Below, one piece after another: positions 3,046 through 44,330 of a stretch of DNA of 48,040 nt. The stretch spans positions 115,748 to 163,787 of the forward strand of contig WELB01000123.1 in assembly GCA_009602725.1 (NCBI GenBank), given 5' to 3'. Both the position numbers and the translations under genes were made by a program. The notes under the pieces are model-generated. The model worked only from the letters and a program-made list of their open reading frames with translations, was not told the origin of the DNA and did not search any database. The stretch comes from Spirogloea muscicola. Its lineage: Eukaryota > Streptophyta > Zygnematophyceae > Spirogloeales > Spirogloeaceae. Position 1 is the first letter of the stretch. Every line of letters begins with the position of its first letter.

Positions 3046-3082
3046 TATCTCGCCGTCCTAGATAAGTGCCATGAAGCCAATA

Positions 3083-3675
3083 ACCGGCGCAATGCGCGCC
3101 TTCAGGAGCTCCACGAGGCTGCGATCTCGGTGTGTGGGGGACCCTGCAGTGGCTTTCTCGAGAGCGCTGCTGGAAGAGGTGCAAGCGCTTGTCGCCCGGG
3201 TAACCAAGAGCGAGAAGCGTGTCCACAAACTGAAGGCCAAACTCCGTGAGTCGCAGGTGGGGCGTGCCAAGCCCGCCTCACCGGCCAAATTCAGTGGACA
3301 ATCCTGCCGTGGCGGCCTCGACGCTTGGCTTGCAGAAATCCTTGCGTGGTTCGTACAGTGTGGCACCGGCGCACAACGCCGTGTCGGGCTTGCGGTCACG
3401 TACCTCTCAGGCAATCCCGCCCAGTGGTGGGAAAGCGTGAAGAAATCATCCACCCCCGTAGTGTATAACCATTGGGATTTCTTCGTCAGATCGTTGTCAA
3501 GCATGTGTGGCGAGGTGCACGCCGAGCTCGATGCGCAAAACAAGCTTGATGTCATTCGCATGAGAAACAACGATATTGAAGACTGTGATGTGCGGCGGTT
3601 CCACATGTTGTTGTCGAAACTCAACAGCAAACCCATGGATAACGCTGACCAGTGCCAGAGGTTTAAGGCAGGGCT
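3083..3675 (+). pseudogene. LTR-retrotransposon gag fragment (left palindrome arm)
   Basis: The plus strand encodes a retrotransposon gag-type capsid domain of the Ty3/Gypsy kind. Recognisable features are a basic coiled segment (KSEKRVHKLKAKLRES), then AVTYLSGNPAQWWES, which matches the A-x-x-Y-L-x-G-x-A-x-x-W-W signature, then HWDFFV, a block around AQNKLDVIRMRNND, and FKAGLPEQM at the domain's usual end. The N-terminal third present in the minus-strand copy is missing, and no protease or polymerase follows. A small in-frame change near IEDCDVRRF relative to the other arm (FEDFVRQF) suggests drift. Confidence 0.75.
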
Positions 3676-4272
3676 GCCCGAGCAAATGACCACAAGCCCT
3701 GCCTTAAATCTCTGGCACTGGTCAGCGTTATCCATGGGTAAGCTGTTGAGTTTCGACAACAACATGTGGAACTGCCGCACAAAGTCTTCAAAATCGTTGT
3801 TTCTCATGCGAATGACATCAAGCTTGTTTTGCGCTTCGAGCTCGGCGTGCACCTCGCCGTACATACTTGACAACAATCTGACGAAGAAATCCCAATGGTT
3901 ATACACTACGGGGGTGGATGATGTCTTCACGCTTTCCCACCACTGGGCGGGATTGCCTGAGAGGTACGTGACCGCAAGCCCGACACGGCGTTGTGCGCCG
4001 GTGACACACTGTATGAACCACGCAAAGATTTCTGCAAGCCAAGTGTCGAGGCCGCCACGGCAGGATTGCCCACTGAATTTGGCCGGTGAGGCGGGCTTGG
4101 CACGCCCCACCTGCGACTCACGGAGTTTGGCCTTCAGTTTGTGGACACGCTTCTCGCCCTTGGTTACCCGTGCGACAAGCGCTTGCACCTCTTCCAGCAG
4201 CGCTCTCGAGAAGAAAGCCACTGCAGGGTCCCCACACACAGTCTCGTGAAGCTCCTGAAGGCGCGCATTGCG
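3083..4272. repeat. Large palindrome: two gag fragments in inverted orientation
   Basis: The left arm (about 3083-3675) and right arm (3695 to about 4272) are reverse complements with a few percent mismatch and one or two small indels. The spacer is only 19 bases (3676-3694). The left arm encodes retrotransposon Gag on the plus strand; the right arm encodes the same segment on the minus strand. The long open frames that read through both arms on each strand are half Gag and half antisense. Such an arrangement would form a hairpin if transcribed and is also prone to assembly artefact. Confidence 0.88.
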
Positions 4273-4890
4273 CCGGGCGTCATCGGAGGTCAGGACGTCC
4301 GCAGCCGTCGCCTGGAACTTCCCTAGATCGTCGGCAAGGTCCTCGACCTCAAGAGGTGGAACAGCCGGTGGAGGAGGACTTGGGCATGTAGTGGAGTCCG
4401 GCGACTGCATGCCTGATACCACACACTGACGGATCAAGTCAGATGTGGCAGACTTATCGAGGATCCATACTGGCAAGAAGTCCTCAGAAGGACTGGTGCC
4501 CCAGACCCACGAGCAATCAAGACAGCACATGTGACATACCTCCAAACCACAAAGCTGTACGAGCAGCAAGAGGGAGGGACCAGGAGTGGACGAACCAACA
4601 ATTCCTGGCATACGGTCAGACTTTGCCGCCCACCAGCGACCGGGTTCACTTCTGTGCTGTACTGGCCGGCAATCCGCTGGACACAGGTGGTTTACGCTGG
4701 TAAGATCTGACCTGGCACGGTAATTTGGTGCCGGGACGTAAGAGCCGCTTGGCATCTTGAGGTCCCCGTACGTGGATGTCGAAGGCGAGAGGGTGGCACA
4801 CGTGCCACTTTGTTGAGCTCCTCGTCTACTCTGGAAAAAATTTGCTCGAAAGTGGAAAATTAGTCCAGAATACAGGAGGGATCCATGCAC
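3695..4890 (-). pseudogene. LTR-retrotransposon gag, 5' portion (minus strand)
   Basis: Reading from 4890 downward, an open frame begins MHGSLLYSGL and runs through a poorly conserved N-terminal region. It continues with a Pro-rich stretch (TTCPSPPPPAVPPLEVEDLA), a coiled basic segment, and the gag capsid domain with TYLSGNPAQWWESV and FEDFVRQFHMLLSKLN. At FKAGL it reaches the palindrome centre and then reads antisense sequence. A tRNA-Met-type primer binding site lies 50 bases upstream at 4941-4952, so the order LTR, PBS, gag is as expected for a Ty3/Gypsy or Copia-like element. Protease, reverse transcriptase and integrase are absent: the element is truncated at the fold-back point. Confidence 0.72.
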
Positions 4891-4940
4891 TGTCAGCAGT
4901 AAAACACAACCTTATACTTGACTGGCTAGATGCAAGAACA

Positions 4941-14208: not shown

Positions 14209-17200
14209 CTATACAAACACAACAAAACCATCCAATTGCTTCTTGGCCTTCAAAATGGCTCCTTGCTTCAATTCAGCTCGTCTTTCAAGTGAGGGCGGTT
14301 TGTATGTCATCAAATAGTTGCGAAGCCGTTCGCCAGCTGTCCGCACATTGATTGGCTTCCCCATGACAGCCGAGTAACCCGACATGGCGTACTTTTTCTG
14401 CAAGTGACAGTGCTATAGTCAGCACAAGAAAAGGCAGAAAGCCGTTTGCAAGGCCTTCTTGTGCCTAGCAAGTACGAGCTTGAAATTAAGTAATATGCTC
14501 ATGAGACCATGACGTATCTTGGCGCCATGCTCATAATATCAGCCAAATGCATGACCCCCATAGTTGTTGGGCTGAGTTGATGACGATACCAGGTCAGCCC
14601 CCTCTACATTGGCGGAGATGCCAATAATGGGCACCTCTGGCAGGTTGCAATCAACTTCGTGTTGTCGAATGAGCTGGCAAGCTTCAGAGCCATTCATGAC
14701 TTTCAACCTTCACAGTTGGATGCAGGAAACATCATTACAACGTGGCAAATCCTCGCTTTATATGAGATACGTTTGAAGATATATGTTGCTGACTGAAGAC
14801 AGTCACGGTGCAGCCCAGGTGGCCTGGACACAGAGTCTGCAGCGGCAATTATAGTATTTACATCAAAGGACTCACCTTTCATCAAGAAGGAGAGCATCAA
14901 ACTTTTCTCCTAGCTCAATAACCCTCCAGATCACGTCAGTCCCATCTGTCCCAGTCTCCACCTCAAAGTTGGCTCTGTAAGAAGAACACAGCCAACGAGT
15001 TCTCAGTTGTCTACTTCAACAAAATTCAACTGGCACACAGACTTCAACAACCAGCAAGAGTATATCATGAATTGAGGACTTTGCACTGCAGCAGCCCAGT
15101 ATCTCTGAAGGAGCAGCCATCTCTAATCCAAAAGCATCTACCCTACTTAAGAGCCATTGCCCTGTTGAGGTCGGTCAAGATTGTACTTGTACAGTGCCCG
15201 CTTGACAACCATGACATTGACAGGTTCGTCGTCAATGACCAAGGCCTGCACAGGAGCACAAAGTCAAGCGCAAAGCTATCATGAGGATGTCCAAATCCTC
15301 GTCTACATGACCACTTCACCACACGCGCCAACATTGACTGCCTGGCATAGGCAAGCTAATACTCCAATAAGATGCTTGGTCCTTCTGTACAAGTTGAGCA
15401 GAATTTACCAGTACATGTTTGCAAACCTGCTACAGTTGAACAATGATGTCAATCGATGACATCATTGAGAGGGCAAAAGAGAAGGGTGACTCACCTTCAA
15501 GCCACGTGTTCCGGAAGGACCGGAACCAGGGGACTGTGCAATGGTCGACGGGCTGCTAAGCCTTGACTCACTCCCAGCATTGGTGCCAGAAGCGTGCCTG
15601 GGCGACGCGCACAACGAAGGAGGGACAGACGGCAGGATGGACATGTTAAATGGCAGCTTGCGGATGAGCTGGGGCCTCTGCGGTGGCGGGGACGACGGCG
15701 GCAGACGCGGTGCCGGGAAGAAGACGGAGGACCCTCCGGAGCTCGACCTTGCCAGCGGCGGCGCTGATTGCACGAGCCCCGACGCCGTCGGAGGAGCGTC
15801 CAGCGAGGCGTCTGCTGTGGCCAGCATGGGACCCTGTGTGCTGAGCTTCGCTGCTAATGGCCGCAGGCCAATGTTGGCAGCAAGCTGACCGCTGGAGCTC
15901 GTCTTGGCTGCCACCGCCGTCAGCAACGCCGTGTGCGCCGGCCCTGAGTGAGGCGAAGACGAGCCTACTGCAGTGCCAAGGTCCAGCGAATGCCAAGAGC
16001 TGGCGGGCTCTCCCTCACCGGCAGCGTGCTGCCATGCCGTCCTCTCGACCGGAACGCGAGGACTCAGCCTTGAGCTTGGAGTACCGGGCTGCGCCAAGCT
16101 AGGAACGTCATGCACGACGAGCGCCGGCGAAGAGCCAGAGCGACCGAATGCCCGTCTAAACGGAGACGCGCGCGTTGGCGAGGCTTGCGCTTCGCGGCCC
16201 TGCACAGCTGCTGCCCCTGACTCGGCCTTTTCCTGCGCTGCAACCGATCTCCAGAGAGACGGCACAGCAGCTGGCTGGTGCGCGGCCTCGGCGGCCAGCA
16301 ACGCGGCAGAGGGGAGGAACAGCCGCGCAGCATTCGCCAGGGCCCGCGCCGTCGCTGCTGGCAGGAGTGCAGCGCCGCTGTCGCCGCCACCCTGGCCCAA
16401 TGGCGCCGCCGCTGCCGGCGCCTCCTTAGCCGTCCCCCACTGCTGGCGGGCTGCGGCGCCGACCGTGATCTCCGCGAGCACCGCCGCCTCGCCTGGTGTC
16501 ACTGTCTCGCGCACCACCCGGAAGCTCCACGAGTCGCCGAACGCCAGGGCCAGCCGCTGCACCACCTGGTCCAGCTCCAAAGGAGGGGGGCTTGCACCGA
16601 CACTATGTGCCGTGGCTCGTGCGGGCTGAGGCTGAGCTGCCTGCTCGAGCTTGCGCCAAGGTGACGGCGGGGATTCAGTGTCCAGCGGCCTCGGCTCGTG
16701 ATGTGAGAGCGGCAGCTCCGCAGGCCGCTCGGCGGGCTGCGCAGCAGCCGGCGGCTGGGGCGGCGCCGCTTGGCGAACGTCGGCCGAGCTTGCAGCCGGC
16801 GGCTGGTCCGCTGCCTGGGCCGGCGAGCTGCCGAGGCGGCCGGCCTGGTGCCATGGAGCCAACGCTGGCACAACGCTGGCCGGCTGCTTGCTGAAGAACG
16901 GCGGCGGAGCACGGTGGTGCGCCGCCGGCTCCGGCCTCCCAGCCTCGGGGCCCAGGAGGACGTCGAGCATCGTGGCGTTCAGGGACCGGCGACGGCCAAG
17001 GTGCTGCTTGGCTTCCAGAAGCTCGGCCAAAGCTGGGCCCGGTGGGAACGCGGCTGCGGGAGCCTGCTGCTGCGCCGTCCTTATCTGGTCAGGTCCACTG
17101 TCCTCCTCGCCAGTCGGCTGCGCTTTGCTGGCTAGCAAGCTCGGTGGGTCGCTGGAGATGGAGGGCGGCTCGCCTGCACCATGCTCATTGTTGGCCTTGC

Positions 17201-20200
17201 TCGGCAGCGGGAATGCAAACTCCTCGTCCTCAATGCTGCTGCTCTCGAGCGAGTCACTGGGTGTCGGCTCGTCGAGCAGGTGCGAGAAGGGCGAGGGCTC
17301 CTTGGCACCGGCCGGCAGCACCTGCAGGTCCACGTCCAGCGAGAACGTGGAGCCCTTGCCCGGCTGGCTCTGGCACTTAACCTCGCCGCCCATCAGGTAC
17401 GCCAGCTGCTTCACGATGCTCAGGCCGAGGCCGGTGCCGCCGTACTGGCTTGTGCTCGTCTTGTTGCCCGTCGAGTACTCCTCAAACAGCCGTCGCCTCA
17501 GCGGCTCCGAGATGCCCTCCCCGCTGTCTGTGACCTTGAATGAGAACTTGGCGAACGTCCGGCCGCGGCTATCTGGGGCGCTCGGCTCCTGCATGGCGAT
17601 GCGGATGTCCACGTACCCGGTGTGCGTGAACTTGATCGCGTTCCACGCAAAGTTGGACAGCACCTGCTGCAGCCTCGGGGCGTCCCCGAGCGGCCGCCAC
17701 TGCAGGCACCTCGGCTCCACTGTGCTGAAGAGCTGCAAGCCCTTCTTGGTCGCTGCAATCGCAACCTGCACAACGTCACATAGATTAGCCCACAGCCAGT
17801 GACAGCTGTCAAGGAAGTGCAACTGCTGCATCACTGTGTGATCCTCGGTCCCTTTTAAGTGCAGGTTTTGCTGCATATGCGAGTCAATGCAGGGACAAAG
17901 GCATTCTCATGCACGTCCTGTGCTACACATACCTGGCTAATGATTGCATTCAGGATCTTCTGTAGCTTGAGCTCTTTCAACTCAAGCTCTGTCTTGCCCT
18001 CCTCGATCTTACTAATGTCCAGCACATCCTCCACAATCTTCCTCTGCTCAAGCCGAATTCATTTTCCGATGTGAGTCTGCAGCTTAGTTGCAACTTTACA
18101 TGACACTTTCTGCTGCTTGGACTTATTTGTACACCTGTTCACTGGAAGGCTTGACGCTGTGATATGACATTGTTGACCATCATAAGCAGAGTAAATGTCA
18201 CAAGCGACCCTTTGAGACTCTGAGGACATTAGTACCGGGTTCAAAACGTAGACCCAATGAGCATGAGTTCACATCGGGATTTCGATGAGCTGACCAGCTG
18301 GTGACCGCAGGTAGCTGTTGTTTCCACGAGCTCCCGCTGCTCCTCCGTGAGCGTCGTATCCTCCATGAAGGTGATGTTGCCCAAGATGCCATTCAGCGGG
18401 TTGCGGATCTCGTGGCAGAGGAACGCAAGGTGACGCGATTTGGCATCGGCGGCCGCCTCTGCAGCCAGCCTCACAGCGTTGGCCTTCTCCACCGCCTTGC
18501 GCATGCTCACGTCCTGCATGAAGCACAGGACACCGACGGCGTTCCCGGCTTCGTCCCGCCGCGTGGTCAAGTTCACCAGGCTCTCAATGTGCCGGCCCTC
18601 ATCATTGACAAACTTGAGGTGAGTGAGAGGCGTCTCGTGCCCAGCCAAAGCCCGCTGCAAGGCAAAGTCCAAGGACAGTAGCATCTCCTTGTCTGGCACC
18701 ATCAGGACCTTCTCGGACCCCACAAGATCCCCCATGAGCTGCTTCCCCAGGGCCTGCTCCTTTGATATGCCTGTGTAAGACGACCAGCTGTAAGTAGCTA
18801 ATAGGTCCATAAGCTTGGTAGAGCATGCACCCGAGCTGCATCGCAGCAAGCAAAGGGCGCCCAGCCCTGGAGCTCAGTGCCAGGTGTATGCCATGTAGTT
18901 GGCAACACGTTAGCAAAGAATAACTGTGATCTGCCAGCATCTATGATGGTGTATTCGTTCTAGACCACCTACCTAGAGGCCCTATGACCAACATGCTCAT
19001 GGTGCTCTGCCTCTTCTGAATGCACAAATGCAGGACACTATCCACAAGATAATAACAGTCTTACCAGAGGTCTTGGCCATGGCACTGTTCCACTCAACAA
19101 TGACGCCCTCTCGGTCGACACCCCAGATCGGCAAAGTGGCCTTGTCAATAATCTTCTTGTATGAAAGCTTCTCTGCTTCTCCCTCACCACCTTTGACTCC
19201 TCCATCAAGAAGAGCTGCCTTTCTCATCATCAACTTTTGCTCAGTGACATCCTGCCGGGTGAGAACAGTTCTTATCAGATCTCGGTGACATGACAATAAT
19301 GTCAAGGTGCAAGGACACTGATCAAGGCCAAAGATAAGACGGCTACAAAGCTCATCATCCCCTTATAGAGAAGAGGAGTAAGGTGGATGCAGACGGTGAC
19401 CTGGCCAATGATGCTGACGCCGATGACCTTGTTCGCAGAGTCCCACTGAGGAACCATGTTAACCATGAGTATTAGCAGGTCCTCCTGCAACTCCAGCAGA
19501 GACAGGCTTGGCTCTTTGCCACTAGCACGACCTTTCAACGAGGTGCCATTGACTGGCACCCTCTTCAGATTTATCTCCAAGTGATCCTGGGTGTTCCCTT
19601 GCAGCACTTTCTCGACTACTGCAATGACAGACTCTACACAGTCCGGTACCAACACATCAACCAAATGGCATCCCACCACCCTTGCCTGCACATGGAACAG
19701 CTCAACAGTGACTCTTCAGAACCAAAGTCATATTGCAGGACAGCATTTTCCCATGCTGGAATCAGCTCTATGCTGTTGGCTTCTTAGTGTAACTTTCTTG
19801 GTGGGCAAAGTGAGCAGCAGCTTGTTGTAACCCAAGCACTACTTAGCATCAATTGACAGTTTGCTTGTTGTCACAAGTCTATGCAGATGCAAAGTCAGTC
19901 CAGACTTAGAGCTGTGGCAGACTAACTTTTGGTTTGCCAGTGAGTTGAGCCAGCCTCTGGTTCCACTCCACAAGGACCATGTGCTCGTTGATGCTGAGAA
20001 TTGGAGTCTTGGCAATCTCCATCATGTGCGTGAGATCTCTTGCGACAATAGCCAAGTCCTGCATAGCTTTGAGCCTCTCTTCATTCAGTCGAACCTGTGG
20101 AAGTACGACACATAGCTGCCTTCAGAACGAGAGTAAAAGTGACAACAATAGTTTGACATGTAAGCAGGTAGAGCAAAGCTGGTCAGACATGACAGCCCAT

Positions 20201-23200
20201 TTTCTGTTATCAGGAGCACTGGGCAAGGACATGTAAGACCTACATCCTATCTCGTACTTTATAAGCAGACAATATACTAAGGATGCCCATCATATCCCAA
20301 ATCATCTCACCCCAGGCATCAGCAGGCTTGTGTGTGGGCAAGCTCTTCCACCTCTAGCCTTACCAGCATCATGGTTTTGATGGGCTCACTATTGCCCGTG
20401 AGAGCATCGTCAGCCATCTTCCGCAGACCTTTGAGGCAGTTCACCTGAACCACTCATGGAATGCGGACTGAGCTAGTCAAATGTCTACTCTGGTTAGGCA
20501 AACAAAGTAGATGCTACACTGATGCATCTCAGCAACTATTGCTTAGCTAAGCTCCCGTTTTCTGCCATCAGAATTTGTGGCATATTTTAACTCTTATGTA
20601 GCTTATAGCTCATAAAGGGCTTACGGCTTACAGCATCAGAATACTAGCCAAATGCAATAGCTTCGAGACGAATGTAGTATAGGTCCAAGTCAACCATGAC
20701 AGTGATAGTTCTTGATAGTCCTGAGTCCCTTCCACAGTGTTACATAGCAGCAATTCAAAGCAGCGCACATCTCCAAGTGCACCCACCTCAGCTGCGGTCC
20801 AGACATCTGATGACGCCTCTGAGGACTGGTACGCCTCAGCTTGAACAAGTGGCGACCCTGCTGCTGCTGGATGTGTCCATGCCCAGTCCTTCACCACATT
20901 CATTCCTGCCACACGTCCAATGGGAAGCTTCCGGCTCAGCTTAATCAGCTCACTCTCAAACAGCAAGAGCATAAGCAGCCTAGCCATGAGCAATATGCAT
21001 CCATGCAAGCTCCTTCCCATCAGCGTCGAAAACCTCCGGCCAGCACCAGGTGGCTGTTCTCACGTCTGCGGAACCAGAGCGCAAGGTCGTCTTCAGAGAT
21101 CGCCACAACCGCCAGGCTGCACAGACAAGAGTCTCGCAGGAGCTGGTCTGCCTCTGGGAAGCCTGCAGCCTTCAAGCTGGAGACGGTGTAGAGGCCATCG
21201 ACCATCATCTTCTTCTCCTCCACCCACCTTGTCAGCTTCAGAATCTGCACTTGTCAAATTGAAGATAGCTCACAACACGGCCTGGAATACGCTCTAATTA
21301 GTAAATTCACTTGATAGTTGAACCACTGATTCCAGGTATACCTGAGAGCAGACGCAATTTAGAATTTGCTACATTCATTGTGCAAGCAGTGAAGCTCGTC
21401 ATTAGCCGCGAAGACAAGGGCACTTCCCTACATAAAATGGGACAAGAACCGCTTGTGCTACAGAGCAGCAATTTTGCATCCGCGATTTACTGTCTCATTT
21501 GCCAGCATGCTAATCACAAGAACAAGACTACATCAGGACTACGTTTTCAACGAACTATCACAGGAGATGACAGCTGTCCTGGCTCTAATAACGCCAAGTT
21601 TCTCATATCTTAGCTTTCTGACAACCTTTGCTACTGCAGACACGAGACACAGCAGAATCCAGCTGAAGATATCGTCAATATTATCATGAGAATCAAGTAA
21701 GGTCTGTTCTTTTACCAGAGCATCTGTTGGGCAACATCCGTCTTTGACGATGCTCAACCCTTGGACATGTGCAACTCCTTCACAGGGGATGAGGTCAATG
21801 ATGGAAGGCTTCTCCACCACCAATGAGGTGGGAACTTGGTATGTGAGGTGGTCGCAGATGCTGGTCTGCATGGCTTGCATCTGGCGATCGGCAGCCCTTT
21901 CTTGAGCCTTCACTGCCGTCTCTAGGTGCGCTCTGAGGGCCTGTTGCAGGTGGCGAAAACAAAGCGATGCTTGTCACAATCATTGACAGCAGCAGCGGAC
22001 AGATAGTGAAAGTACCATGCTCGCAAGACACATCTACATGACAACTGTTGGAAATAGCTAGTCGCACTCATGACATGAAACTGGCACTTTAGGCCTGCAA
22101 ACAACATTGACTGGCATAGACTAGTTGGCTGCCTGTGTACCTGTATCAGGAAGGTGCAAGAAGCCCTCCGCGAGTTGGGGAGGAGCCACGGTGACTGATA
22201 GTGGTGGCATACTACAATGCCCCACAGCTTTGGCATTCCTCTTGAGGGGATCTCAATGGGCATGAGAAGGAGAGACTTGACCCCTAGCTTCTCAAGGACC
22301 TCGGTTTGCTTGTCATGAACTCCTGCAGATTGACACAAACAAGAAGGACCATGAGCAACCTGCAGTTATTGACATGGGACCCAAATAGTGTCACAAACAG
22401 GACACGAGCTTACCTGCAAGAGGAGAGTTGACCAAAGAAAGAGACTGCAACGAAGTTGCCTCCCCAGCTAGTGGGACCTGAGCAGCTCCAACACCGTAGA
22501 TGAGCCGCATTGGTACTGCTTTGCTGAGTCCATTCACCCAGTCCTGGATGACACAAGAGGATGTGACCAGAGACTAATCAGAAAACATGTCGAGTAAGTC
22601 AAAGCTTACACCCGATCAACATGGCAGCTGTGAATTGCATTCTGCTCACTGTTTCCATATTATGGCCCCAGTCACAGAAGATCTCGGGGACGTGTGTTTA
22701 GACAGGATGCATGCAGACAAGATGATAGAGAGAAAGATAGCCTGGAAGATGCTACAACCTGGGGCAAGGCCACCATTGGAAAATGCAAGCCTTTGTAGGG
22801 TGGGAGTGACTGTAGGCAACTCTCTGCAATGACCTGGAGAAGCCACTTCTGTCAAGTCAGCACAGAAGCAGAAACTGCCCACGTCTGGGCTGTGGTGTAG
22901 TCAGCTCCTCTGACCTTCCCTCAATCACACAGTACAGCCTGTAGGCGCACTACTTCAGGTGCTGGACATTTACGCTTGAAGCGCTTGCACGTTCGTCATT
23001 TGCAAGGTATTAAAAACATTCTGTATTGCAGGTGGCTCTGTATGTGGCAATGGAGAGGGAGGCCCAGTTTCAAGACCTCAGCAGTGTCCCCGTTCTCAGC
23101 AACCTGCCCAATGACAACCCTGTCATACCCTGCCATGTTACGGAGCTCCTGCAACCATGAGCATGCAGATAGACAGTGTTAGTAAGCACGCATCTGAGAG

Positions 23201-24543
23201 AGTCAAGTCAATCTGGAGTATGTAAGAATCTGATCAGCAAGGTCTCTGTTTGGCACTGTGAGCTCCAGTAGCTGAGATTGTGGTCTTGGCCATATGTACC
23301 TGGGCTGCAACTGCACAAAGACTAACTACATCTCGTGCCGGTACGGCTTGGAGGTGGTCGATGGCAACCCTCGCTAGTTGATGGAAAGGCAATTGAGGGA
23401 CGAAGGTGCGCTCGCTGTGCTCCTTTGAAGATTTCTTAGTTGCTGTCAGGTAGACAAACCAAATGCTCCATGAAAATTATGAAGGGGGAGTGGTCAGGAT
23501 ACATTGGAGATGGAGGGACGTCTTTCAGAGATGTCTTCTGCTCTGGTCCTAGTTTGGAAGTAGTCAGGGCAGACCTGCTTCAGTGTCTTCCTCAAAGCTC
23601 AGGTACACATATCCGCCTGATCGGTTGACAGTGACAAGGATACAGCACTCTGCAATAAAGGCGCAGCTGTTGGCTCTCACACCGGCTGGGTTTCACGAGG
23701 AAGGGGGAGACAGGTGAGGCGAACTTGCATGCTGAATGCCAACGTTGCCATTCTATGAGTACAACTGAAGTCACGGGGAGGCTACATATCCAGGTGTGGG
23801 CACAGGCGCAGCAGGAAGCACACAGGTAGAGGATCATCTCCTGTGATGTACCTCCTTCTGCAACAATGCGGCATGAGCTAGAACGGTAGTCTGCCCATGC
23901 AGATGCTAGCTGCATCTTGGCATACGCCTGCAATTAGGTCAAAAGTAGGTACTCAATAAGCTTCACAGCACTGAGGGGCCAATCACACCCTGTGCTACTT
24001 GGAGAAATTGCTCCCTGTAGTCTATGCCCTCCTGCTCTGCAGCAATGAAGGTCACCTTATACAACAATGTCTTCAATCGTTAACAGGCTTATGCAATATC
24101 TTTAGTCAAGCTGGCACACCTCTTCACTGAAGAGGTCCAACAGTGGCATGCCCACCAGGCTGGCAGAGTCAACTTTGCCAGCAACCTTGACCACATCGAG
24201 AAAATTCCTACTGTGTGCTAGGATCTGATGAGCAACATCGTGTGACAGCAGCAAGCCGTCAACCTCGTCGTCAACATCAGAGTTGCATATAGATTAGTAA
24301 ACCATAGCACATTTTGTGATTGCTTCCAGTCAGGCCAGTGCACAGTGCATACGTAATTTTCAAACACTCTGATCTTTCTGAGACAGATGCTGAAGTGCTC
24401 ACACAATGAGGATCAACCTGACACGGGGTAGCAAGTCAGGCCAGAAAGTCATTTACCTGGTAGTGCTTGCTGTCAACGACGAGTAGGCACCCATGGCCCT
24501 GGATGGTAGCCAGCGCTGGTGGCATGGTCTTATCTGCAACCAT
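14209..24543 (-). CDS. Phytochrome-type hybrid histidine kinase with receiver domain; GAF lacks bilin Cys
   Basis: Multi-exon sensor kinase. N-PAS: IQGHGCLLVVDSKHYQ (24457-24543), ILAHSRNFLDVV (24120-24224), VNRSGGYVYLSFEE (about 23570-23660). GAF: 23300-23442, GYDRVVIGQVAENGD (23077-23148), YKGLHFPMVALPQ (22759-22833), 22414-22543, then GVHDKQTEVLEKLG and KLWGIVVCHH (22141-22322). PHY: EKPSIIDLIPCEGVA (21716-21940), LKAAGFPEADQLL (about 21025-21244). PAS1: 19927-20094 and 19401-19685. PAS2: 19065-19251, continuing into 18295-18770, which ends with HisKA CHEIRNPLNGI. DISKIEEGKTELEL: 17933-18044. HATPase: NAIKFT, DSGEGI, GGTGLGLSI at the start of the 757-codon exon 15495-17765. REC: VIDDEP (15187-15245), ALLLDER (14876-14974), PIIGISAN (14590-14707), GKPI (14209-14397). 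Kinase and receiver residues look functional. The plant PxSDIP motif reads PMVALP and G-C-H reads G-V-H. The start ATG at 24541-24543 gives a short N-terminus, so an upstream exon is possible. The domain order matches prasinophyte and charophyte phytochromes. Confidence 0.88.
16295..16580 (-). other. Rad52/DdrA-like stretch inside the phytochrome tail
   Basis: Within the otherwise Ala/Pro/Ser-rich linker between the HATPase and REC domains, about 95 residues look folded. LDQVVQRLALAFGDSWSFRV is followed by VLAEITVGAAARQQWGTA, a Gly-rich turn and SGAALLPAATARALANAARL. This order (V-x-x-R-L, then a-x-W-S-F-x-V, then a beta strand with ITV and R-x-x-x-G, then A-x-x-x-A-L-x-x-A-A) is the pattern I know from Rad52/DdrA-type single-strand annealing proteins. 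It is a by-eye match only; alanine-rich bias could mimic the helix. Confidence 0.4.
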
Positions 24544-27513: not shown

Positions 27514-27960
27514 CGGATGAGAGGAGACAGAAGCTTGCTAACAGAGAGACTCTGGACGAGTTTCTCTCTCAGGAAGCTCGCGCTCCGCGGCAGTTGCAAC
27601 TCTGGGGTCTCCGCTCAGCCCGTGGCTGGGCCCGCCTGGCCGGCCTCCTCGGCAAAGCGCTCGCTTGCTGCGTGGCCGCCGGCATGCTGGGCCGGCGGCC
27701 GAGAGCCCGGCGCCGCAAGCCCGGCGATGTCGGGAATGGCCGTTCAGTGCTATCTCCGTCGAGCTTGCAGCATCGGGGGCGCCGGCGGCCGTCGCGTGCA
27801 GTCGCCGCGGCGCGCGAGCGAGCGGGAGGCTGTCTGCCGAACCGCAGGCCCTCGGCTGCAGCTTCGTGCCGACTCAGCAACACGCCGACCGACTTAGCGC
27901 AGACAAGAAAACAAAAAACAAAGAAAAGCGGCTGCTGATGTTAAAGAATTGGCTGTAAAC
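27514..27960. other. GC-rich stretch; no gene recognised
   Basis: Several overlapping frames on both strands are rich in Ala, Arg and Gly and look compositional. The segment ends with TTGGCTGTAAACTGCCAGCC, a weak version of the family A stem-loop, just before the large family A ORF. Confidence 0.4.
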
Positions 27961-27980
27961 TGCCAGCCAGAGGCATACAG

Positions 27981-29048
27981 GTGTTCATGACGGAGCCAAA
28001 GGCTAGGCTGACAGGGCGCCCTCAATACCCCCGTGTCAGCAGTAGGAAGTCAGATGAGCACCCGGACCTGGCAGGCCAGGCGGTCTCCTTCGCGCACCTC
28101 GCGCACACCGCTGACCTGCGCGTCCAAGCGCGCTTCGCGGCTGTGGTCGACAAGGTCGCCTACGCCACCGCCGTGCTGCAGCTCCCTGAGGCCGACTTGC
28201 GCGGGCGCGCGAGACTTCAATCGGCCTCCTCCCCGGGGGCAGCGGCGTGGCTTCAGGCCCTCCCCATTAATGACGCCCTCGCTCTCCCCGATGAGGTATT
28301 TCGCACTGCCGTCCACCGGCTCCTGGGGCTACCGCCTCCATGTCTCCAGGGCGTGCGTCAGTGTGTATGCGGCGAGCGAGGGGCCGAGTCTGGGGAGCTG
28401 GCCGCTCATGTTCTGCGCTGCACCCACGGCGGCGAGCGGACAGCGGCCCACGACCGCCTCCGCGATGCCATGCATGGCATCCTGTTGGAGGCTGGCTTCT
28501 CCGTGGCAGCGGAGCACTCCGGCATCATGCCGATCCAGGAAAGGGCCGACGATCTCCACGCCCGGCGTGTAGACCTGGTGGCCACCCCACAGGCCGGCGG
28601 GCCACGTCTTCTCCTGGACGTGGTGACCACTGATGCCTACGACCGCTCACACCCAGCCCAATGTGCCACCACGGCTGGGTATGCAGTCGCCTGCGCTGCT
28701 CGGGCTAAAGAGCTGAAGTATGCAGACCATCCGCGGGAAGACGAGTTCTACCCGTTGGCCATTGATACCCATGGGGCGCTGGGCGCTCGGTGGCTCGAGC
28801 TGCTCAACCAGCTCGCCCGCCACACCATCGCCCGTCGCTTCCATGGGGAGCCGGTAGACTTTCCTGCAGCCGGGTCGCTGGCGCAAGTGTATCGAATGCG
28901 CCTGGCCGTCTCGCTGCAGAGGTCTATGGCCCGGGCGTTGCACCTTCGTGCCGGCAGAGCCCTCGCTGCTGCCTCTGGCTCTGGCCAGGGGACCCACTTC
29001 AACGAGCCTAGCATCTCCGACCTGCGGCTGCTTAGCAGAGGTTACTGA
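27981..29048 (+). CDS. Family A non-LTR retrotransposon: zinc knuckle and endonuclease domain (355 codons)
   Basis: This is the better preserved of two long family A frames. After a linker that follows the reverse transcriptase in such elements (FAHLAHTADLRVQARF, RLQSASSPGAAAWLQALPI, FRTAVHRLLGLPPP), it has a zinc knuckle (C-V-C-G...H-V-L-R-C). Then come HDRLRDAMHGILLEAGF, the PD-(D/E)XK-like core RRVDLVATPQAGGPRLLLDV, AKELKYADHP, and the C-terminal block THGALGARWLELLNQLAR ending LRLLSRGY. Such restriction-like endonucleases nick target DNA to prime reverse transcription in R2, NeSL and Dualen-type elements. No reverse transcriptase lies upstream, so the copy is 5'-truncated and the Met start is only the first in frame. 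Confidence 0.72.
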   Translation: MFMTEPKARLTGRPQYPRVSSRKSDEHPDLAGQAVSFAHLAHTADLRVQARFAAVVDKVAYATAVLQLPEADLRGRARLQSASSPGAAAWLQALPINDALALPDEVFRTAVHRLLGLPPPCLQGVRQCVCGERGAESGELAAHVLRCTHGGERTAAHDRLRDAMHGILLEAGFSVAAEHSGIMPIQERADDLHARRVDLVATPQAGGPRLLLDVVTTDAYDRSHPAQCATTAGYAVACAARAKELKYADHPREDEFYPLAIDTHGALGARWLELLNQLARHTIARRFHGEPVDFPAAGSLAQVYRMRLAVSLQRSMARALHLRAGRALAAASGSGQGTHFNEPSISDLRLLSRGY

Positions 29049-29175
29049 GTTATTCGTAGCTGCTTTGTTTCTGTTTCTTGGCGCACTTCCCCTGGCCCCC
29101 TTCTTATACTCTGTTCGTTCTTTTTCGGGCTGGCTTTTCCAGCCCCTACTCTCAATGAGCGAGCACTTTCTTCTT
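29049..29175 (+). repeat. Family A 3' UTR with conserved stem-loop
   Basis: Immediately after the stop, the tail contains CCCTGGCCCCCTTC, then GGGCTGGCTTTTCCAGCCCC (perfect 7-bp stem, 5-base loop, about 29129-29148) and ends GAGCGAGCACTTTCTTC. The same layout follows nearly every family A copy in the window. Confidence 0.75.
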
Positions 29176-29199
29176 GATGAGCTGAGGGGAGGAAGAGCA

Positions 29200-30163
29200 A
29201 CCGCTGCCCGAACCAGAGGCTGCTGCAAGGGCGCGACCAGCCCGGCGATGCAAAGCAATCGCCTGGGACCCCTGTAGGCACATGGACAAACGCATTCGGT
29301 AGCAGGACACAAGACCCAAAGGCATCGAGCCACCGGGAAGGGCTGCACCCTGTTCCCGGCGCCGCTGGTCAGCTTGAGAGGCCAGCAGCAGAAGTAACGA
29401 GGACCACCGACCCCCGTAACACCCATGGATGTCCATGGCCAGGGGGTAAAAGGTATCACCCGCCGGGTGGTCCTTGTACTTGTTCAACTTCTTCTGTTCG
29501 GCCACCTTCACGGCATAGCCGGTCTCAGAAGTAATGGGGCCCTTCGTCCGGAAGCTGTCGGTTAGGACGACGTCCATGAGGAGCCGCTTGCCACCTCCCG
29601 GGGGGACTCCAACCAGATCGACACGCCTCGTCCGAGGGACCCCGTTGCGGAGTTGGACGGGCATCACCCCGGTGCTCTCCAACCACTTCATATACCGCCT
29701 CCTTGACGATGCCATACATGGCGTCACGTAGGAGGTTGTGGGAGCCCGTGCGCTCACTGCCTCTGGCACAGCTGAGCATGTGGTCACCCATGAGCAATGC
29801 ATCATGCTCAATAAGCCCACATTCACTCTTGGTCACCCCTGCCAAGCACAGGGATGGTAAGACAAGGCGGCGGCACATAGCATCGCAAACCCAAGCATTC
29901 TCCATCTGCAAGCCCGCATGCAAAGGCAAAGCGCGGAGCCACTCAGACGCTCCCAGAGACGAAGCAGATAGGAGCCGAGCCTGGCCTCGAGCATCTCCTT
30001 GGAGGAGACTCTGGAGATGCTCCGGTGGTTGCTCATCTGCAACACGGGAAAACCGCGACTGAGCCTTAACAGCAGAAAGGAGAGAGGAGACTGCGCAGCA
30101 GTACGGACGGTAGAGTTCCTCCTCGCTTGCCCCGCCTGCCAAATTGGGCAAACCTTCCTCCAT
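29200..30163 (-). pseudogene. Divergent family A-like endonuclease ORF with frameshift
   Basis: From 30163 downward: SAVKAQSRFSRVADEQPPEH, RLLSASSLGASEWLRALPLH, CRRLVLPSLCLAGV, then a zinc knuckle lacking its first Cys (S-E-C-G...H-M-L-S-C) and HNLLRDAMYGIVKEA. At about 29650 the frame shifts. The other frame continues PRTRRVDLVGVPPGGGKRLL, MDVVLTDS, KLNKYKDHPAGDTFYPLAMD and a C-terminal block with CYRMRLSMCLQGSQAIALHR. The normal LTRGY ending is replaced. Identity to the other family A copies is much lower, so this is an older insertion or a third subfamily. Confidence 0.65.
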
Positions 30164-30299
30164 ATCTGGTCATCAGCTGTGCGGGCGTTGCTGCTGACAG
30201 CACTTTCTCGCCAGGGATTCCGCACCCGTTGGGCCAGACATGCACACCCTTTTTGCTAGTGAAAGGCCTCTTCTTCTGCAGAAAGATGGTGCTGACGAT

Positions 30300-42955: not shown

Positions 42956-44056
42956 TCAGTATCCACGTGTGAGCAACAGCAGATCAGAGTAACTCGGAGC
43001 AGGAGAAGCGGCACTTTGCCGAGACCCGGAAGCAGCAGCCATAGCACGGCCAGCCCGCGCGTGGACCGCATGAGCCAAAGAGCGCTGCAGCGAGACCGCC
43101 AGCCTCATCCGAAAGACCTGCGAGAGGGAGCCGGCAGCATTGAAGCCTGGCGAACCCTGCCGCCGCTCGATGGCCTCCCGGGCAAGCCGCTGGAGGAGAT
43201 CCAACCAGCCACTGCCAAATGCCCCGTGTACGTCAATGGCCAGTGCCGCGAAGGCATCGCCTGGAGGGTGGTCAGAGTACTTGCGCTCCTTACTCCGAGC
43301 CGCCAGAGCGACCGCGTGCCCGACGAGCGTCGCGGACCTCGCGGGGTTGGCCGAATCAACGCAATCGGCAGTTACCACATCAGCGATGATGCGCGGACCT
43401 CCTCCGGGCGGGATGGCAACGAGGTCCGCGCGGCGGGTGTGAAGCTGTCCATCGGCGCCCCGCAGGATGGGCATTATCGTGGAGTTCTCCACTGCCACCT
43501 TGTAGCCGGCCTCCAGGAACACACCCTGCATGGCGTCTCGCAGGAGGTCGTGCGAACCTGTCCGCTCGCCCCCGTGTGCACAGCGGAGCATGTGGGCCGC
43601 CAACGCAGCAGGGTCATCGTGGCGGGCACCGCACTCGCACTGTTGGACCCCGATGAGGCAGGGAGGGAGGAGGCCGAGGAGCCGGTGGGCCGCCGTCCTG
43701 AATACCGCGTCTGAAATAGTCAGCGCCGCGTAGATGGGGAGTGCTGCTAGCCACGCCGCCGCCCCAGGGAAGGAGGCGAAGAGGAGCCGGGCGCGCCCTC
43801 GGGTGTCGTGCGGCGGAAGGAGCTCCACCAACTGGTCGTAGGCCGCTTTGTCCACCAGCGCAGTGTAGCAGGCCTGGGCCCGCAGGTCGGGGGTGTGCGC
43901 AAGGTGGATGAACGGGACGACCTGCTTCGACATGTCGGGGTGGGCCGCCAGGAGCGCGTCGCGGGCAGCGCGGAGAGCAGGTCTCGGGTCCCAAAGCCTC
44001 GACCTGCTGGCCAGGCTCGCTGTGTCCCGCAAGCGCGGTGAGCCGGCTGACTTCAA
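42956..44056 (-). CDS. Family A non-LTR retrotransposon: zinc knuckle and endonuclease domain (366 codons)
   Basis: A long uninterrupted frame. Post-RT linker: FIHLAHTPDLRAQACYTALV, RARLLFASFPGAAAWLAALP, FRTAAHRLLGLLPP. Zinc knuckle: C-E-C-G-x10-H-M-L-R-C. Then HDLLRDAMQGVFLEAGYKVA, catalytic core TRRADLVAIPPGGGPRIIAD followed by VVTADCVDSAN, a conserved Lys-rich patch RSKERKYSDHPPGDAF, IDVHGAFGSGWLDLLQRLAR, AGSLSQVFRMRLAVSLQRSL and the ending SDLLLLTRGY. The Asp in ADLV and the Asp in IADVV fit the PD-(D/E)XK pattern. No reverse transcriptase precedes it: upstream on the minus strand (above 44056) lies another family A copy in the opposite direction, so the true start is lost. Confidence 0.72.
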   Translation of the reverse strand: MKSAGSPRLRDTASLASRSRLWDPRPALRAARDALLAAHPDMSKQVVPFIHLAHTPDLRAQACYTALVDKAAYDQLVELLPPHDTRGRARLLFASFPGAAAWLAALPIYAALTISDAVFRTAAHRLLGLLPPCLIGVQQCECGARHDDPAALAAHMLRCAHGGERTGSHDLLRDAMQGVFLEAGYKVAVENSTIMPILRGADGQLHTRRADLVAIPPGGGPRIIADVVTADCVDSANPARSATLVGHAVALAARSKERKYSDHPPGDAFAALAIDVHGAFGSGWLDLLQRLAREAIERRQGSPGFNAAGSLSQVFRMRLAVSLQRSLAHAVHARAGRAMAAASGSRQSAASPAPSYSDLLLLTRGY

Positions 44057-44330
44057 CGCCGCTGGCTCGTGGGATCAAGTCTATCGTATGAGATTATCAG
44101 CATCCCTTCAGCGGTCCGTGACCCACGCTCTGCATCTGCGTGCTGGCCGTGCTCTCGCTGCGGCCTCCAGCTTTCGTCAGGGTAATAGTTTTCCGGCAGC
44201 TAGTCTATCAGATCTAAGGCTCCTCACTCGTAACTACTGAGTGATCCATCCTCCCCCTGTTCTGACATAGCATCTTCAGGCCACTTTGTCGCTGCTAAAC
44301 GCTCGTAGGCCCCTCCAAGCCTTTGTCAAT
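43970..44330 (+). pseudogene. Family A C-terminal fragment, head to head with the ORF at 42956
   Basis: The plus strand encodes SLDLLARLAVSRKRGEPADF, AAGSWDQVYRMRLSASLQRS and HALHLRAGRALAAASS, ending SDLRLLTRNY with a stop at 44240. The tail follows. Its 5' end overlaps the 5' end of the opposite-strand ORF at about 44000, so one copy probably inserted within the other. Confidence 0.62.

What the first reader, a model, noticed from the sequence alone, without database searches (positions are those of the whole stretch)
22141..22833. Phytochrome GAF domain without the bilin-attachment cysteine
After splicing the exons at 22414-22543 and 22141-22322, the chromophore loop reads S-P-L-A-G-V-H where plant and algal phytochromes have P-H-G-C-H. 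No Cys occurs in the 24 residues around the site. The preceding exon (22759-22833) reads YKGLHFPMVALPQ, so the P-x-S/T-D-I-P motif has lost its Asp. Elsewhere the fold is well kept (YDRV, KLWGIVVCHH) and the kinase looks active. Either bilin is bound non-covalently or at another Cys, or the protein now senses something else.
Basis: partly seen in the sequence, partly recalled or inferred. Interest (0 to 1): 0.9.

Follow-up and report, generated by a model that had tools for sequence, protein, structure and literature searches.

The report
Phytochrome relative with dismantled bilin pocket
This green-alga gene makes a phytochrome-like protein that has lost the parts needed to hold and switch a light-absorbing pigment but keeps an intact signalling kinase; such proteins were reported in 2015 as PHYX1, and what they sense is still unknown.

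Summary
The gene (minus strand, 24543-14209) encodes PAS-GAF-PHY-PAS-PAS-HisKA-HATPase-linker-REC. It is annotated as SM000123S25834, by inference Spirogloea muscicola (Zygnematophyceae). In correct register the P-H-G-C-H loop reads V-H-D-K-Q: Cys to Lys, His to Gln. The DIP Asp is Ala; one propionate-binding Arg, the pocket Tyr and the tongue PRxSF motif are gone too. Two further copies (about 85% DNA identity) and orthologues in Mesotaenium, Closterium and one unnamed transcriptome also lack the Cys; the nine other phytochrome copies found in this genome keep Cys, Asp and PRxSF. It is not a pseudogene: three open copies, dN/dS 0.09-0.15 in GAF and 0.03-0.07 in the kinase, dS equal to intron divergence. 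No micro-exon restores a Cys. The phenomenon is in print: Li et al. 2015 reported that charophyte PHYX1 lacks all known bilin cysteines, and this gene fits PHYX1. Added here: the whole light-switch circuit went, the same loops gained residues invariant only in this family (C192, W213, W460; Q260 in 5 of 6 rows), and the hybrid kinase stayed intact. Most likely it is a bilin-free sensor kinase responding to something other than light; the signal is unknown.

The parts
14209..24543 (-). Whole coding span, ATG to TAG, 23 annotated exons; annotated as SM000123S25834 (P0001, 1837 aa)
   Evidence: Three-copy alignment and exon model; annotated ends identical; annotated protein equals the model minus one 36-base exon
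23575..24543 (-). Exons of the N-terminal PAS (PAS_2), without a Cys upstream of its IQGHG motif
   Evidence: Pfam PAS_2, 32.4 bits over a cut-off of 21.4; Cys list
22141..23442 (-). Exons of the GAF domain, the former bilin pocket
   Evidence: Pfam GAF, 34.2 bits over 22.4; aligns with phytochrome B structures from residue 147 of the model
22816..22818 (-). Codon of C192, a Cys invariant in 6 of 6 family rows and absent from 16 of 16 other rows
22768..22770 (-). Codon of A208, in place of the DIP-motif Asp
22306..22311 (-). Codons of K259 and Q260, in place of the bilin-binding Cys and the following His
22323..22413 (-). 91-base intron next to the site; no Cys-coding in-frame micro-exon
20364..21940 (-). 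Exons of the PHY domain; tongue has WAWT and no PRxSF
   Evidence: Pfam PHY, 46.7 bits over 27
18412..18414 (-). Codon of the phospho-accepting His (FLCHEIRNPLNG)
   Evidence: Pfam HisKA; sequence; H box in 6 of 6 family proteins
17322..17687 (-). HATPase_c domain (coordinates by residue count), N, G1 and G2 boxes intact
   Evidence: Pfam HATPase_c, 87.3 bits
16296..16580 (-). Conserved block of about 85 residues in the long kinase-receiver linker
   Evidence: alignment A1; no Pfam family over its cut-off
14209..15245 (-). Exons of the receiver domain; acceptor Asp codon 14883-14881
   Evidence: Pfam Response_reg, 50.9 bits over 30.2; DD and LLLDE motifs in 6 of 6 family proteins

Best explanation
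The gene is the Spirogloea PHYX1: a hybrid histidine kinase on a phytochrome scaffold that no longer binds bilin. The PAS-GAF-PHY-PAS-PAS part still folds and dimerises (inferred) and passes a conformational signal to an intact histidine kinase, whose phosphate goes to the receiver at its own C-terminus and from there into a phosphorelay (inferred from intact motifs). The former chromophore pocket has been rebuilt with residues found only in this family and most likely answers to a small molecule, redox state or partner protein instead of light. Shown here: loss of the bilin-holding and bilin-switching residues, intact genes in three copies, purifying selection, intact kinase and receiver motifs. 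Inferred: absence of bilin, the new signal, the phosphorelay.
For: Of 10 residues whose roles in holding or switching bilin are given for oat phyA3 (passages of PMC5928327), 8 are lost (kept in at most 1 of 6 family rows), against 11 of 48 other near-invariant columns. The published salt-bridge and hydrogen-bond partners (Asp of DIP, tongue Arg and Ser, pocket Tyr) went together. 9 of 9 other phytochrome copies of the genome keep Cys, Asp and PRxSF. GAF dN/dS 0.085-0.146, kinase 0.028-0.073, dS equal to intron divergence. Kinase H, N, G1, G2 and receiver DD and LLLDE motifs in 6 of 6. New invariants C192, W213, W460 (6 of 6 rows, 0 of 16 others) and Q260 (5 of 6, 0 of 16) in or near the pocket loops and tongue.
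Against: No protein was made, so absence of bilin is not shown. Some pocket residues are kept: R287 6 of 6, P274 5 of 6, the first His of CHH 6 of 6, and Mesotaenium P0004 may keep an Asp at DIP. C192 could carry a bilin. Purifying selection on GAF would also fit a working photoreceptor. Three of the six rows are near-identical copies, and the tongue alignment is uncertain. Sequence identity of GAF between genera (40%) is far below that of the kinase (70-72%), which would also fit a weakening sensor.
Confidence: 0.65

Rival explanations
1. PHYX1 is still a photoreceptor: it binds bilin without a covalent link, or through a new Cys, most plausibly the family-specific C192 in the GAF domain.
For: C192 is the only GAF Cys shared by 6 of 6 family rows and absent from 16 of 16 others. 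One propionate Arg (R287) and the first His of CHH are kept in 6 of 6. GAF is under purifying selection. Li et al. 2015 left this option open.
Against: The Asp, His, second Arg, Tyr and both tongue residues that position or switch the bilin are lost. Bacterial phytochromes in the table that lack the GAF Cys (P0017, P0019) keep Asp, His and PRxSF. Whether C192 faces the pocket was not tested.
Confidence: 0.15
2. The sensory part is blind: PHYX1 works as a constitutive or partner-driven kinase, for example by pairing with the Cys-bearing phytochromes, and the GAF domain is kept only for fold and dimer contacts.
For: Kinase is the most conserved part between genera (70-72% against 40% for GAF and 30-40% for PHY) and between copies. 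The Mesotaenium model has an insertion at the loop and no Pfam GAF match. The N-terminal PAS and linker are the least constrained parts.
Against: Family-only invariant residues in the old pocket loops and a GAF dN/dS near 0.1 suggest a specific job there.
Confidence: 0.18
3. Artefact: a pseudogene, an assembly error or a missed exon that restores the Cys.
For: No transcript of this species was examined here.
Against: Same splice borders and open frames in three copies; dN/dS well below 1; no Cys-coding in-frame micro-exon; the site aligns without a gap to Cys-bearing phytochromes; P0148, by its name an assembled transcript of another species, reads through the same site without Cys.
Confidence: 0.02

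Closest known systems
Charophyte PHYX1 (Li et al. 2015, PMC4525182; passages and section 11 seen)
   Same: Zygnematophyte phytochrome outside the canonical clade, no bilin Cys, conserved kinase His, receiver domain in some members
   Different: No difference of kind shown. Li et al. name Zygnematales and Coleochaetales; here it is also in Spirogloea (inferred species), Mesotaenium and Closterium.
Canonical plant phytochromes (phyB and others)
   Same: PAS-GAF-PHY-PAS-PAS scaffold; GAF-PHY region matches phytochrome B structures at E down to 1e-45
   Different: Those keep Cys, DIP Asp, PRxSF; by Li et al. they lack the kinase His and a receiver
Prasinophyte and other algal HK-REC phytochromes (P0032, P0036; species unnamed)
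   Same: Histidine kinase, the conserved linker block and receiver
   Different: They keep Cys, Asp and PRxSF
Rhodopseudomonas palustris bacteriophytochrome described as having gone 'from light to redox sensor' (Vuillet et al. 2007; title seen in the reference list of PMC6879726; content recalled, paper not held)
   Same: As recalled, a phytochrome kinase that lost its chromophore and took another signal: a precedent for the mechanism
   Different: Bacterial and independent; its residue losses were not compared here

Membership tests
PHYX1 (charophyte non-canonical phytochrome) | PAS-GAF-PHY photosensory order | tested here: met
   Pfam PAS_2, GAF and PHY over their cut-offs in P0001
PHYX1 (charophyte non-canonical phytochrome) | No known bilin-binding Cys in PAS-GAF | tested here: met
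   No Cys at the GAF site (K) nor N-terminal to the PAS motif. The two other site classes that Li et al. count (CysA-D) were not mapped one by one.
PHYX1 (charophyte non-canonical phytochrome) | Conserved phospho-accepting His; receiver domain in some members | tested here: met
   H box, HATPase_c and Response_reg
PHYX1 (charophyte non-canonical phytochrome) | Found in zygnematophytes, outside the canonical plant clade | tested here: met
   6-row clade at 100/100, outside the land-plant phytochromes; species name inferred from gene identifiers
PHYX1 (charophyte non-canonical phytochrome) | Falls inside the published PHYX1 clade | not tested
   No published PHYX1 sequence appeared by name in the listed hits
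Canonical plant phytochrome | Bilin-binding Cys in the GAF domain | tested here: not met
   Lys259
Canonical plant phytochrome | No phospho-accepting His and no receiver | tested here: not met
   Both are present
Functional bilin photoreceptor | DIP Asp and PRxSF tongue motif | tested here: not met
   Asp is Ala and PRxSF is absent
Functional bilin photoreceptor | Binds bilin and photoconverts | not testable with these tools
   Needs expression with bilin and spectroscopy

The most novel reading that the evidence does not exclude
In the algae nearest to land plants a phytochrome was turned from a light receptor into a thiol- or ligand-sensing hybrid kinase, using a family-specific pocket around C192, W213 and Q260, in parallel with the light-to-redox change recalled for a bacterial phytochrome.
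Probability: 0.2. Interest if true: 0.8.

Novelty: new member of a known kind. Interest (0 to 1): 0.45.

Why it matters
PHYX1 was reported in 2015 as a Cys-less branch found in algal sequence data. Here it is an intact, constrained gene in three copies with orthologues in other genera; its residue losses match the published light-switch circuit, and its new invariants name the residues to mutate. That makes the question of what a phytochrome senses once it no longer sees directly testable in relatives of land plants.

Tried and rejected
Missed micro-exon restoring a Cys: not found. Pseudogene: rejected. A bacteriophytochrome-style Cys ahead of the N-terminal PAS motif: none in P0001. My 36-base exon 3 (24034-23999) was first included, then judged doubtful: the annotated proteins of the three copies lack it, by eye most of its few changes alter the amino acid, and by eye P0148 fits better without it. 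The dN/dS figures still include its 12 codons of 1849. P0137 (Closterium NIES-64) was read and set aside as an ordinary hybrid kinase. The linker block reminded me of a RAD52-like pattern; profile searches of PDB and Pfam gave no support (weak matches only, none over a Pfam cut-off). In the HK-only tree the neochrome row P0015, a very long branch there, falls among the six rows; the six-row clade is not rejected (p-AU 0.51). Of 262 proteins fetched, 22 rows went into the tree and 22 into the table, chosen by me; P0151 was used in neither, P0024 only in the tree. Structure prediction was not run: the family's proteins are longer than the 1200-residue limit. Two papers on bacteriophytochromes without chromophore are not held.

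Full report
What was checked. The window is G000:C123:115748-163787 of a 153 Mb assembly. The gene lies on the minus strand. Aligning it with two further copies (C331:15086-21674, 85% DNA identity; C16:655636-662319, in two pieces at 84 and 85%) gave a 24-exon model with GT-AG borders and open frames in the three. The protein database holds the same gene as SM000123S25834, s123:129956-140290, minus, which converts to window 14209-24543, exactly my ends. The annotated protein (P0001, 1837 aa) lacks one 36-base exon of mine, and so do those of the other copies; I follow the annotation and number residues by P0001. The prefix SM beside ME (Mesotaenium, jgi/Mesen1) and the three copies point to Spirogloea muscicola; that is inference. 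A published table gives S. muscicola as 174 Mb (PMC11096116, passages); its genome triplication is recalled.

The site. Without gaps, S-T-L-R-A-P-H-G-C-H-A-Q-Y-M of a phytochrome B faces S-P-L-A-G-V-H-D-K-Q-T-E-V-L. The Cys is Lys259, the next His is Gln260, the Arg of S-T-L-R is Ala, the Tyr is Val. P-A-T-D-I-P reads P-M-V-A-L-P in the window copy and P-M-A-A-L-P in the other two. The tongue has W-A-W-T and no PRxSF. In the same genome the nine other phytochrome copies that the PHY search brought up (C16, C101, C175 and tandem pairs on C48, C72, C146) all keep G-C-H, D-I-P or D-V-P, and PRxSF (9 of 9). That PHY search works exon by exon and did not list the window gene itself, so other diverged copies could have been missed.

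The family. Three protein searches (each scored only about 8,000 candidates) gave three orthologues: Mesotaenium P0004, Closterium sp. NIES-53 P0149 and P0148, by its name an assembled transcript of an unnamed species. With the three copies here they form one clade at 100/100 in a 22-row tree, next to P0005 plus land-plant phytochromes at 95/92; the clade stands at 100 (SH-aLRT) when pocket columns are left out. None of the six rows has the Cys; the residues there are K, K, K, Y (Mesotaenium, uncertain because of an insertion), Q and A. No published PHYX1 sequence appeared by name among the listed hits, so the assignment to PHYX1 rests on features and tree position.

Which residues went. Passages of PMC5928327 give roles in oat phyA3: D272 salt-bridged to tongue R552 in Pr and bonded to Y326 and S554 in Pfr, R317 and R287 sharing the B-ring propionate, I273 and P274 packing on the B-C plane, H323 and H372 near the chromophore. 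I mapped these by motif (constant offset; the oat sequence was not fetched; H372 was left out because CHH is ambiguous) and added the attachment Cys. Family rows keep D272 1 of 6, I273 1, P274 5, R287 6, R317 0, Cys 0, H323 0, Y326 0, R552 0, S554 0. Over 58 columns near-invariant in 16 other phytochromes, 8 of these 10 are lost against 11 of 48 others (one-sided Fisher p 0.001; related rows and an uncertain tongue alignment make this a guide only). Two bacterial phytochromes in the table without the GAF Cys (P0017, P0019) keep Asp, His and PRxSF, so losing the Cys alone need not bring the rest down.

What came in. Residues invariant in the family and absent or rare elsewhere include C192, W213, P222, Q233, P276, W460 and T461 (6 of 6) and Q260 (5 of 6) (where numbers are 12 higher). 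C192 is the only GAF cysteine shared by 6 of 6 rows and absent from 16 of 16 others. New invariants in loops that once held bilin suggest a new constrained job rather than decay (inference).

Is it alive? Between copies, over 1838-1847 codons, dN/dS is 0.18-0.20. By part: GAF 0.085-0.146, PHY 0.04-0.13, PAS-PAS 0.065-0.073, kinase 0.028-0.073, receiver 0.14-0.17, N-terminal PAS 0.31-0.41, linker 0.30-0.38. dS is 0.21 and introns differ by 0.20-0.21. Silent sites thus drift at the intron rate and the protein does not. The kinase keeps its H, N, G1 and G2 boxes in 6 of 6 family proteins and the receiver keeps DD and LLLDE in 6 of 6. The C-terminal Lys motif was not matched in the Mesotaenium model (5 of 6), and my ISAN pattern matched 4 of 6; P0148 and P0149 carry ISAN after a different residue (sequences). 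Between genera the kinase is 70-72% identical, GAF 40%, PHY 30-40%.

What is known. Li et al. 2015 (PMC4525182; [quoted passage not shown] PMC7027972 (passages) places PHYX1/PHYX2 as sister lineage of plant phytochromes. Searches for PHYX1 and for Cys-less or bilin-free algal phytochromes (lists capped) showed no functional study of PHYX1 in the held library, from which most subscription journals are missing.

Verdict. It is not a new phenomenon but a well-defined new member of PHYX1. The most likely reading is a bilin-free hybrid histidine kinase with a rebuilt sensory pocket; the signal is unknown. A photoreceptor using C192, and a signal-blind kinase or partner of the other phytochromes, remain possible.

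Noticed in passing
16580-16296 (minus), exon 20: A block of about 85 residues in the kinase-receiver linker is conserved in 8 algal phytochromes compared (5 of them outside or only distantly related to the window gene's species), with 9 invariant columns; no Pfam family over its cut-off and no convincing PDB match.
   Followed up: partly
G000 C48, C72, C146 (L016, L017, L022-L025): Each of these contigs holds a tandem pair of Cys-bearing phytochromes with a kinase His, PHYX2-like by my inference; the annotated SM000146S00945 (P0005, s146:67237-84897) spans both members of the C146 pair as one gene.
   Followed up: partly
24034-23999 (minus): A possible 36-base exon, in frame in three copies but absent from the annotated proteins; probably not coding.
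   Followed up: partly
3058-4911: Two long reading frames on opposite strands carry nearly the same protein, like an inverted pair of retroelement-type gag frames.
   Followed up: no
27945-30169 and 42956-44074: Several long reading frames on both strands repeat the same protein motifs and look like copies of one repeat family.
   Followed up: no
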